DNA from: an uncultured delta proteobacterium
GTDB lineage: Bacteria; Desulfobacterota; WTBG01; CAIYCZ01; CAIRTM01
DNA length: 47,637 nt
Reading direction: 5' to 3'
NCBI GenBank assembly: GCA_903881505.1
Contig: CAIRTM010000060.1
Location: 1-47,637, forward strand
Position numbers and translations under genes: made by a program. Below, in pieces: positions 6,019-45,026 of this stretch; within the stretch, counting starts at the first letter, position 1; each line of letters begins with the position of its first letter. A model generated the notes under the pieces. The model did not search any database, was not told the DNA's origin, and saw nothing but the letters and a program-made list of their open reading frames with translations.

Positions 6019-6110
6019 GGAGAGATGGCCGAGTTGGCTGAAGGTGCACGACTGGAAATCGTGTGTACGTCAAAAGCGTACCGAGGGTTCGAATCCCTCT
6101 CTCTCCGCCA
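6019..6110 (+). tRNA. tRNA-Ser (anticodon GGA)
   Basis: A 92-base class II tRNA. The acceptor GGAGAGA (6019-6025) pairs with TCTCTCC (6100-6106). The D arm carries GCCGAGTTGG. The anticodon stem CACGA/TCGTG holds loop CTGGAAA with anticodon GGA. The long variable arm GTACG/CGTAC marks serine. The T arm is GAGGG-TTCGAAT-CCCTC. Discriminator G and an encoded CCA close the gene. It lies between tadA and the SRP RNA. Confidence 0.97.
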
Positions 6111-6162
6111 CGTTTTTTGCAAAAGCAAGCATACGCATTCGGCCCGTTCTGCAGCAGATGAT

Positions 6163-6262
6163 GAGCCGGATCCCAAACAACAGATGACGTGTGAACCCCG
6201 CCAGGTCCGGAAGGAAGCAACGGTAACAGGGATTTTGTGTGTTTGGTGTATCCGGCTCTTTT
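6163..6262 (+). ncRNA. ffs: Signal recognition particle RNA, small bacterial (4.5S) type
   Basis: About 100 bases. The closing stem GAGCCGGAT (6163-6171) pairs with ATCCGGCTC (6250-6258) and is followed by TTTT. The apical domain carries the conserved Ffh-binding core GTCCGGAAGGAAGCA with its GGAA tetraloop and the asymmetric internal loop. Location between tadA and dnaX is the classic one for this RNA. No Alu domain is present, so it is the short form. The ends are estimated from the closing stem. Confidence 0.95.
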
Positions 6263-43303: not shown

Positions 43304-43333
43304 AAAAACAGGGCAAAAAACAAAGCAAAAAAA
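43304..43333 (+). promoter_or_regulatory. Three phased A-tracts upstream of the rho promoter
   Basis: Runs of five, six and seven A (43304-43308, 43315-43320, 43327-43333) have centres about 11-12 bases apart, near one helical turn, directly upstream of the -35 box. This is typical of UP elements or intrinsically bent DNA that raise promoter strength. Confidence 0.7.
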
Positions 43334-43334
43334 C

Positions 43335-43362
43335 TTGACAAGACAGAATCAGGGACTATAAT
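43335..43362 (+). promoter_or_regulatory. Consensus sigma-70 promoter for rho
   Basis: TTGACA (43335-43340) and TATAAT (43357-43362) both match consensus exactly, with a 16-base spacer. The transcript would start near 43369, giving a leader of about 410 bases before the rho start. Confidence 0.85.
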
Positions 43363-43778
43363 GTAGTCATTGCAGTAACAGCACATACCCTTCCCCGTAC
43401 TTCTAAGACGTTAGAAACCAGTGTGTGCATGTTCTTTCCCGTGTAGTATATCTCACATGTGAAAAACGCCCGTATGCAGATAACACAAGGGTAGATTGTC
43501 CGGGGGAATTTTGCGCGGCGCCGATACTGCGGACGCTGCATGGACGCTTCTGGGGCTTAGGGCCGCTAACCGTTCAAATCACGTAACGCTCATTGCCGGA
43601 ATTCATTTCTGTTGATCAGCTCGCATATAACGATACGCTCAACCTGACGATAGCGCTATTCCATTACAGCCATGCACACCCCGTGCTGAAGAATGTCCTT
43701 CGCCTGTTCGCGCGGGCAGCCTGTCATGGGGTCTGAATACAAAAGCGTTCACTGCCACAACCCGGGAGACACTGTCCA
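43363..43778 (+). promoter_or_regulatory. Long untranslated leader of rho
   Basis: About 410 bases without a gene. A short inverted repeat TTCTAA-GACG-TTAGAA (43401-43416) and a palindrome TCACATGTGA (43453-43462) lie near its start. The later half (about 43570-43700) has visibly more C than G, as Rho-loading (rut) sites do. E. coli rho is controlled by Rho-dependent attenuation in its leader, and the layout here suggests the same. No convincing leader peptide is visible. Confidence 0.5.
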
Positions 43779-45026
43779 ATGAATCTGAAAGAACTCAAGT
43801 GCAAAAAAATCAATGAACTCATGGAAACAGCCAAGCAGATGGGCATCGAGGACTACAGCAGCCTGCGCAAGCAGGACCTGATTTTCGCGCTGCTGCAGTC
43901 GGAAATCGAAAAAAACGGCCTGATTTACGGTGAGGGCGTTATCGAGATTCTGCCCGACGGCTTCGGATTCCTGCGCGCCCCGGACTACAACTACCTTCCG
44001 GGCCCGGATGATATTTATGTGTCTCCCTCGCAGATCCGGCGCTTCAACCTCAGGGTCGGCGATACGGTTTCAGGCCAGATCCGGCCGCCCAAGGATTCCG
44101 AGCGCTATTTTGCCCTGCTCAAGGTCGAGACCATCAACCTTGAAAGCCCTGAAAAAGCGCGCGACAAGGTGTTGTTCGACAACCTGACGCCGCTCTATCC
44201 CATGCGCAAGCTCGAACTTGAGACCGTGAGCGACAATCTTTCGGCCCGCGTCATGGACCTGCTCAGCCCCATCGGCATGGGCCAGCGCGGCATTATCGTG
44301 TCCCCGCCGCGCACCGGTAAAACCATGCTGATGCAGTGCATCGCCAACTCGATCACCGCCAACCATCCGGATGTTGTGCTGATGGTGCTGCTCATCGACG
44401 AGCGTCCCGAGGAGGTGACCGACATGCAGCGCTCGGTCAAGGGCGAAGTCATCAGCTCGACTTTTGACGAGCCGGCCCAGCGCCATGTGCAGGTGGCCGA
44501 AATGGTCATTGAAAAGGCCAAGCGCCTGGTCGAGCATAAAAAAGACGTCGTCATTCTGCTCGACAGCATCACGCGCCTGGCCCGGGCCTACAACACGGTC
44601 GTGCCGCCCAGCGGCAAGGTGCTCTCCGGCGGCGTGGATTCAAATGCGCTGCACAAGCCCAAGCGCTTTTTCGGCGCGGCCCGCAACATCGAGGAGGGCG
44701 GCAGCCTTACCATCATTGCCACGGCCCTGATCGATACGGGCAGCCGCATGGACGAAGTGATCTTCGAGGAATTCAAGGGGACCGGCAACATGGAAATCTA
44801 CCTTGACCGCAAGCTTGCCGACCGCAGGGTGTTCCCGGCAATCGACATCAACCGCTCCGGCACCCGCAAGGAGGAGCTGCTGATGCGCGACGACGTACTC
44901 AAGCGCATCTGGCTGCTGCGCAAAGTGCTGCAGCCGCTCAACACGGTCGACGCCATGGAATTTTTACTGGAAAAAATGAACGAGACCAAAGATAATGACG
45001 ATTTTTTATGCTCAATGAACAGGTAA
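43779..45026 (+). CDS. rho: Transcription termination factor Rho
   Basis: 415 residues. The N-terminal helix bundle [20 protein letters not shown] and the RNA-binding OB domain ([29 protein letters not shown]) precede the RecA-type ATPase. Walker A is SPPRTGKT (K181, matching E. coli numbering) and Walker B lies in [16 protein letters not shown]. The R loop and Q/R motifs ([13 protein letters not shown]) follow. No N-terminal insertion is present. It shares the coaE-rho-rpmE-prfA-prmC order. Confidence 0.98.

What the first reader, a model, noticed from the sequence alone, without database searches (positions are those of the whole stretch)
43304..43778. rho is driven by an exactly consensus promoter with phased A-tracts and a 410-base leader
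Both hexamers match sigma-70 consensus. Three A-tracts spaced about one helical turn apart sit just upstream. The leader is long, C-richer than G-rich in its later half, and carries two small palindromes. E. coli rho is autoregulated by Rho-dependent attenuation in a leader, so a similar but independently built control is plausible. The very strong promoter would make such feedback necessary.
Basis: partly seen in the sequence, partly recalled or inferred. Interest (0 to 1): 0.5.

Follow-up and report, generated by a model that had tools for sequence, protein, structure and literature searches.

The report
Long C-rich leader before rho
A very strong promoter starts a predicted 410-base untranslated stretch before the gene for the transcription-stopping protein Rho; many related bacteria keep this layout and a short C-rich sign near its start, which fits Rho switching its own gene down, as it does in E. 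coli.

Summary
TTGACA-16-TATAAT lies at 43335-43362, with no separate promoter-like site between it and the rho ATG. The A-tracts are 11.5 and 12.5 bp apart, only loosely phased. The predicted leader is 410 nt; of 17 other exact-consensus promoters in the genome, 15 have an ORF or tRNA within 139 nt.

Relatives keep the layout: gaps of 300 nt or more before rho in 69 of 105 loci against 16 of 200 control genes; TTGACA-type promoters in 33 of 105, 0.8 expected. The first 120 nt have C>G in 62 of 68 leaders against 13 of 31 controls. A motif CC[TC][GT]CC recurs near the 5' end; hold-out 10 of 22, 1.9 expected, and weighting by family keeps the excess. The E. coli rho leader, known to be Rho-attenuated, has similar composition.

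Against: the window's own leader sequence is not convincingly similar to its relatives', and nothing was measured.

Best reading: Rho-dependent attenuation of rho, a known kind, with a short 5' motif I saw described nowhere. Conserved structure, leader peptide, boxA and ribosome-site pairing found no general support.

The parts
43304..43333 (+). three A-tracts just upstream of the -35 box (43304-43308, 43315-43320, 43327-43333), possible UP element
   Evidence: centres 11.5 and 12.5 bp apart; the -60..-36 stretch of 65 promoter-anchored rho leaders averages 41% A, but its A+T exceeds that of the leader in only 39 of 65
43335..43340 (+). -35 box TTGACA
   Evidence: 12/12 with the -10 box
43357..43362 (+). 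-10 box TATAAT (spacer 16)
43369..43778 (+). predicted 410-nt rho leader RNA
   Evidence: start site predicted, not measured
43389..43394 (+). 5' C-rich motif CCTTCC (within ACCCTTCCCCGTA), counterpart by position of the motif CC[TC][GT]CC of relatives
   Evidence: the window's copy lacks the GGR that often follows in relatives
43560..43700 (+). C-over-G stretch of the later leader, candidate Rho loading zone
   Evidence: C 29.8%, G 19.1%; 2% of same-size windows (both strands) of the 47.6-kb window reach this skew
43764..43769 (+). rho ribosome binding site GGGAGA
   Evidence: read, 9 nt before the ATG
43779..45026 (+). rho, transcription termination factor, 415 aa
   Evidence: TIGR00767
42659..43264 (+). 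coaE, upstream neighbour on the same strand; 514-nt gap to rho

Best explanation
Autogenous Rho-dependent attenuation. A very strong housekeeping promoter transcribes rho through a long, poorly structured leader without an evident reading frame and, in parts, richer in C than G. Rho loads on exposed pyrimidine-C sites (first near the 5' end, where the C-rich motif lies, and again in the later C-rich stretch) and, when plentiful, stops RNA polymerase before or within rho. When Rho is scarce or busy, polymerase passes and more Rho is made. Shown: promoter match, predicted leader length, composition, recurrence of layout and 5' motif in relatives. Inferred: start site, Rho binding, premature termination, feedback.
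For: Within the genome: 18 exact-consensus promoters; rho has 416 nt between -10 box and ATG. Of the other 17, 15 have a first ORF of 80 aa or more within 26-139 nt (some of these ORF calls are weak; two of the 15, L206 and L263, have tRNA genes first), one has only a weak ORF at 265 nt (L257) and one sits at a contig end (L260). Phylum: 105 rho upstream regions; gap of 300 nt or more in 69 of 105 against 16 of 200 control genes with a same-strand upstream neighbour, and 14.8% of all 284 control genes; best promoter 11/12 or better in 18 of 105 (0.46 expected), perfect TTGACA with 10/12 or better in 33 of 105 (0.8 expected), at a median of 308 nt before the ATG. First 120 nt C>G in 62 of 68, mean C 23.7%, G 17.5%, YC 14.3, GR 9.2 per 100, against 13 of 31 control leaders. 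In the class the whole leader has C>G in 11 of 11 and the first 120 nt in 9 of 11. Positive control: E. coli K-12, last 255 nt before rho, C 24.7%, G 17.3%, YC 14.1, GR 7.8; its attenuation is in print (PMC6582626 section 9; PMC12121999 passages: 12-fold more polymerase within rho in a rho mutant). Motif CC[TC][GT]CC in the first 90 nt: 26 of 63 against 7.5 +- 2.4; hold-out 10 of 22 against 1.9, 0 of 200 shuffles. With each family weighted once: 10.5 of 30 families (3.0 expected), and in 11 hold-out families unseen before 3.8 (0.7 expected), 0 of 300 shuffles each. In pooled leader alignments the 5' 100 nt are the most conserved (0.427, then 0.338, 0.282 invariant). No intrinsic-terminator-like site on the + strand in 43363-43778; no excess structure in the window's leader and no excess of upstream ORFs over 63 leaders.
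Against: No expression, binding or termination data. The window's leader is not convincingly similar to relatives': 14 to 29 of 100 shuffles reach the score against L003, L004, L006, L007 and L008, 95 against L009; L119 (4 of 100) and L010 (2 of 100) are the best of ten comparisons; a profile of three sister leaders hits only L009 at E 2.4, not the window. The window's whole-leader skew is unremarkable and its middle, about 43443-43560, is G-rich. Against the 12 control leaders of 140 nt or more the C>G difference is weaker (62 of 68 vs 7 of 12, p 0.009) and the motif difference not significant (p 0.10). Many of the 105 loci have no promoter of 10/12 or better (67 of 105) and 36 of 105 have gaps under 300 nt. 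Hold-out C>G is only 16 of 22, 13 of 16 for leaders of 127 nt or more. Five of the ten hold-out motif hits come from one family (f32); without it 5 of 17, 1.3 expected, 2 of 300 shuffles. C>G before rho is also common in other phyla, so it is not specific. The conservation gradient fails in some groups (L013 reverses it, f1 is flat).
Confidence: 0.6

Rival explanations
1. The 5' motif CC[TC][GT]CC-n-GGR is a site for another factor: an RNA hairpin or sequence bound by a protein other than Rho, or, since it lies in the first tens of bases after the start and is partly dyad-symmetric, a DNA operator for a repressor.
For: GGR follows the motif in 40 of 64 loci that have the motif within 100 nt of a TTGAC (17.7 +- 2.9 expected, 0 of 300 shuffles; related loci not collapsed), which plain C-richness does not explain. 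Outward pairing around CC/GG is slightly better with its own flank than with swapped flanks if one bulge is allowed (2.09 vs 1.72 +- 0.17, 9 of 500 swaps reach it, 43 loci).
Against: Without a bulge the pairing is not better than swaps (448 of 500 reach it). The window lacks the GGR half, and most of its class have only a C-rich hexamer. No Rfam family matches the window's leader; among 20 other rho loci the only matches up to E 1 are six sub-threshold ones in one stretch of L033 downstream of rho.
Confidence: 0.17
2. The long leader serves something else: mRNA stability, small-RNA control, or it is merely a long untranslated region with no feedback.
For: The leader's primary sequence is not conserved in the window's genome; the SraL small RNA acts on the Salmonella rho leader (PMC6582626 passage).
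Against: Layout, skew and motif recur across the phylum, and SraL is itself described as protecting rho from attenuation.
Confidence: 0.18
3. The promoter does not make a 410-nt leader: rho is transcribed from a start near its ATG or by read-through from coaE, and the 43335 promoter drives a separate small RNA.
For: No start site is mapped; some relatives have gaps of only 11-83 nt and may rely on read-through.
Against: No separate promoter-like site of 9/12 or better between 43363 and 43779, and no intrinsic terminator in the leader.
Confidence: 0.05

Closest known systems
Escherichia coli rhoL-rho leader (autogenous Rho-dependent attenuation)
   Same: Leader before rho with C over G and a YC-rich first 120 nt (E. 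coli YC 15.0, GR 5.0 per 100; window 13.3 and 3.3); feedback documented in print.
   Different: E. coli rho follows trxA and an annotated rhoL leader peptide; here coaE lies upstream, leaders are often longer (median 308 nt from -10 box to ATG over 33 loci), ORFs are not enriched in them, and a 5' CC[TC][GT]CC motif recurs. E. coli has one such hexamer, 63 nt before the ATG.
Bacillus subtilis rho autoregulation
   Same: rho said to be regulated by Rho-dependent attenuation (PMC12350095 passages).
   Different: Other phylum; leader sequences were not compared here. That paper found no Rut peak at rho with B. subtilis Rho and two with E. coli Rho.

Membership tests
Rho-dependent autogenous attenuation of rho | long untranslated leader transcribed with rho | tested here: inconclusive
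   Promoter and spacing predict 410 nt and the layout recurs; the transcript was not seen.
Rho-dependent autogenous attenuation of rho | rut-like C>G, YC-rich, weakly structured RNA | tested here: met
   Met in parts of the leader: first 120 nt C 25.8%, G 18.3%, YC 13.3 vs GR 3.3; 43560-43700 C 29.8%, G 19.1%; folding z +0.57. The whole-leader skew is ordinary and the middle is G-rich.
Rho-dependent autogenous attenuation of rho | premature termination in leader or early rho that depends on Rho | not testable with these tools
   needs term-seq or Rho inhibition
Rho-dependent autogenous attenuation of rho | absence of an intrinsic terminator in the leader | tested here: met
   No + strand terminator-like site between 43363 and 43778.
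E. coli type rhoL leader peptide | conserved small ORF in the leader | tested here: not met
   Longest ATG ORFs are no longer than in shuffles: median 20 aa in 63 leaders, on average 63% of shuffles reach the observed length. Conservation of a peptide was not tested by alignment.
structured cis-regulatory RNA (riboswitch, ribosomal-protein leader) | conserved secondary structure or an Rfam match | tested here: not met
   No Rfam match in the window's leader nor in 20 other rho loci apart from sub-threshold ones downstream of rho in L033; mean folding z -0.46 over 63 leaders, 6 below -2; RNAalifold gives no structure for the first part of nine leaders of the same order.
boxA antitermination | boxA TGCTCTTTAACA (recalled) in the leader | tested here: not met
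   10/12 or better in 7 of 144 regions; shuffles 1.95, reversed-box control 6; best in the window 8/12.

The most novel reading that the evidence does not exclude
Rho leaders of this phylum carry a specific, so far undescribed 5' element (CC[TC][GT]CC, often followed by GGR) in the first tens of bases of the transcript. It would be a dedicated high-affinity loading or sensing site by which Rho gauges its own free level at once after promoter escape, paired with a near-consensus promoter as a high-throughput thermostat.
Probability: 0.3. Interest if true: 0.55.

Novelty: new variant of a known kind. Interest (0 to 1): 0.42.

Why it matters
Rho feedback is documented in few model bacteria. A widespread, easily recognised leader with a short recurrent 5' motif would give a natural set of rho regulators to compare, a defined RNA for Rho-binding assays, and a way to see rut sites by evolution. 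For the window itself the finding is a sound annotation of an expected kind of control.

Tried and rejected
Conserved fold: not supported (6 of 63 leaders do fold better than shuffles by z below -2). Leader peptide: not supported. Pairing of the 5' part with the rho ribosome binding site: own duplex -10.8, shuffled leader -10.8 (own better in 28 of 61), swapped partners -10.2, so no more than composition gives. boxA: seen in L008 (11/12), L006 and L005 (10/12), but over 144 regions no more frequent than the reversed control. A CTCTCCTGT block shared with E. coli: chance. Direct blastn of the leader: 0 of 97 other genomes. rho in plasmids gave rho genes of 60-80% identity only, and in viral contigs three relatives; neither bears on the leader. 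Hairpin around the motif: marginal. MAFFT of the motif stretches gave an ungapped alignment, so no covariance model was built.

Motif choice: CC[TC][GT]CC was chosen by eye on the first set; searches are the out-of-sample tests, and the hold-out genomes share the phylum and a few families with the first set. C[TC]C[TAG]CC (9 of 11 class leaders, window not among them, 1.2 expected) was also chosen by eye and has no hold-out.

Rows dropped and caveats: the 105 regions are 106 less one exact duplicate; near-duplicates remain. Fifteen of them are named contigs, of which L045 and L051 are by title Myxococcota and Nitrospina; of the 80 named loci, 15 went into that set and 43 (L045 in both) into, the rest were not used. 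Of 75 promoter-anchored loci I left out 12 whose promoter call was in or near the upstream gene or doubtful, and set 5 anchors by hand (L003, L005, L009, L011, L119; two of these are among the 12), giving 68; L005 is anchored at its contig end. One search dropped 5 near-duplicates, giving 63. Control gaps and rho gaps used slightly different ORF rules; rho gaps without an upstream ORF were capped at 700, and two (L005, L010) end at a contig edge. In the hold-out 6 of 22 leaders are shorter than 127 nt, so their '120 nt' reach into rho. In one search L135 was left out for its run of N; it was kept. In some searches minus-strand loci were not yet turned; redone. Searches stopped on script errors.

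Full report
What is there. The window is contig C60 of an uncultured genome. A same-phylum genome, G087, carries a contig of the same length, and an identical rho upstream stretch, as a named record titled Syntrophobacterales (L035, L140), and the closest named Rho proteins are of sulfate reducers and their kin, so I take the phylum to be Desulfobacterota; this is an inference. The gene order is fmt (minus), selA, an RluA/RluD-type pseudouridine synthase, coaE, a 514-nt gap, rho, rpmE, prfA, prmC. In the gap lie TTGACA (43335-43340) and TATAAT (43357-43362) with a 16-nt spacer. It is one of 18 exact-consensus sites in 3.16 Mb, against none for the pattern read backwards. I looked downstream of the 17 others: 15 have a first ORF of 80 aa or more within 26-139 nt (some ORF calls weak; L206 and L263 have tRNA genes first), L257 reaches only a weak ORF at 265 nt, and L260 sits at a contig end; rho's distance is 416 nt. 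So the promoter is not unique in the genome, but its long leader stands out.

The A-tracts are real, with centre spacings of 11.5 and 12.5 bp; this is loose phasing. An A-rich stretch upstream of -35 is common in relatives (mean 41% A over 65), but its A+T exceeds that of the leader in only 39 of 65. The palindromes are ordinary short ones and the leader does not fold better than shuffles (z +0.57).

Conservation of layout. DNA search with the leader finds none of 97 other genomes, so I compared position and composition. Of 105 rho upstream regions, 69 have 300 nt or more to the upstream ORF, against 16 of 200 control genes with a same-strand upstream neighbour and 14.8% of all 284 (20 control stretches of 20 kb). 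Promoter matches of 11/12 or better occur in 18 of 105 (0.46 expected in shuffles), and perfect TTGACA with 10/12 or better in 33 of 105 (0.8 expected); 67 of 105 have no match of 10/12 or better. In a hold-out of 40 further loci, 22 have a promoter of 9/12 or better (4.3 expected), 13 of 10/12 or better (0.9 expected), and 21 have gaps of 300 nt or more. The layout is thus a frequent trait of rho in this phylum, not an accident of one genome.

Sequence. Leaders of L004, L006 and L008 (same family) and of L005 and L007 (same order) are plainly homologous among themselves (z 12 to 16 and 24). The window's leader is not convincingly so: its best pairwise scores are reached by 2 of 100 (L010) and 4 of 100 (L119) shuffles in ten comparisons, the others by more, and a profile of the three sister leaders does not hit it. 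What it shares is a C-rich hexamer near the 5' end. C[TC]C[TAG]CC occurs in 9 of 11 class leaders (1.2 expected); the window and L008 are the two without it, and with CC[TC][GT]CC as an alternative the count is 10 of 11 with the window (1.7 expected). Over the phylum CC[TC][GT]CC lies in the first 90 nt in 26 of 63 (7.5 +- 2.4 expected) and in 3 of 31 control leaders; in the hold-out in 10 of 22 (1.9 expected; 0 of 200 shuffles). Five of those ten are from one family, f32; without it 5 of 17 (1.3 expected, 2 of 300 shuffles). With families weighted equally the counts are 10.5 of 30 (3.0 expected) in the first set, 4.8 of 14 (1.2) in the hold-out and 3.8 of 11 (0.7) in hold-out families unseen before, 0 of 300 shuffles each. 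GGR follows the motif in 40 of 64 (17.7 expected). Pairing of flanks gives only marginal support for a hairpin. In nine alignable groups the pooled first 100 nt are most conserved (42.7% invariant columns, then 33.8% and 28.2%), although L013 reverses this and f1 is flat; pooled C positions are more often invariant than G (58.8% vs 49.1%; A 56.2%, T 52.6%).

Composition. The first 120 nt have more C than G in 62 of 68 leaders, 16 of 22 in the hold-out (13 of 16 where the leader is at least 127 nt), and 13 of 31 control leaders. Only 12 controls have leaders of 140 nt or more; against these the difference is weaker (p 0.009), and that of the motif not significant (p 0.10). The E. coli K-12 leader, a documented case, gives C 22.5%, G 15.0%, YC 15.0 and GR 5.0 per 100 in the first 120 of its last 255 nt, near the window's C 25.8%, G 18.3%, YC 13.3 and GR 3.3. 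In the window the skew lies at the 5' end and in the later 140 nt; the middle is G-rich. C over G in the last 300 nt is also common before rho elsewhere (13 of 17 gammaproteobacteria, 7 of 8 alphaproteobacteria, 10 of 13 Acidobacteria), so it is not specific.

Mechanism. The anatomy fits Rho-dependent attenuation: strong promoter, long weakly structured RNA with C-over-G stretches, no enriched ORFs and no intrinsic terminator, then rho. That Rho controls its own leader in E. coli and other bacteria is in print (PMC6582626 section 9, read; passages of PMC12350095, and PMC12121999). I put 0.6 on it. The chief rival is that the 5' motif serves another RNA- or DNA-binding factor, because GGR after the motif is not explained by C-richness.

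Novelty. The control is of a known kind. The 5' motif matches no Rfam family in the leaders tested, and I saw no description of it in the listings; the library holds only openly licensed papers, so this is no proof of absence. Hence new variant of a known kind, with modest interest.

Noticed in passing
L120 (G000:C15:37615-38646): The genome has a second, short Rho-like gene (44% identical to rho over residues 53-400, one in-frame TAG), read by the ORF listing as two ORFs of 110 and 267 aa; a similar one is in G001 (44%), and matches of 46-49% lie in G002, G007 and G008. The curated model 'paralog_Rho2, short form' hits the window's rho below its cut-off; the paralog itself was not scanned.
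   Followed up: partly
L007, about 310 to 260 nt before rho: The leader of G010 (671 nt from -10 box to ATG) contains a palindromic stretch (GCTCAGGGCGGTGAGCCTGTCGAACCGC) that looks like a dispersed repeat (recalled, not searched); it may be one reason why this leader is longer than its relatives'.
   Followed up: no
L008 and L006, 121-129 nt before rho: boxA-like TGCTCTTTAGCAA and TGCTCTTTATAAA in two sister genera; not enriched over the phylum.
   Followed up: yes
L032, L129, L158, about 254 to 393 nt before rho: GAGAC...GTCTC arms enclose the CCTTCC motif, a possible longer hairpin in one lineage.
   Followed up: no
window 6019-6260: A tRNA gene and a bacterial small SRP RNA lie side by side.
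   Followed up: no
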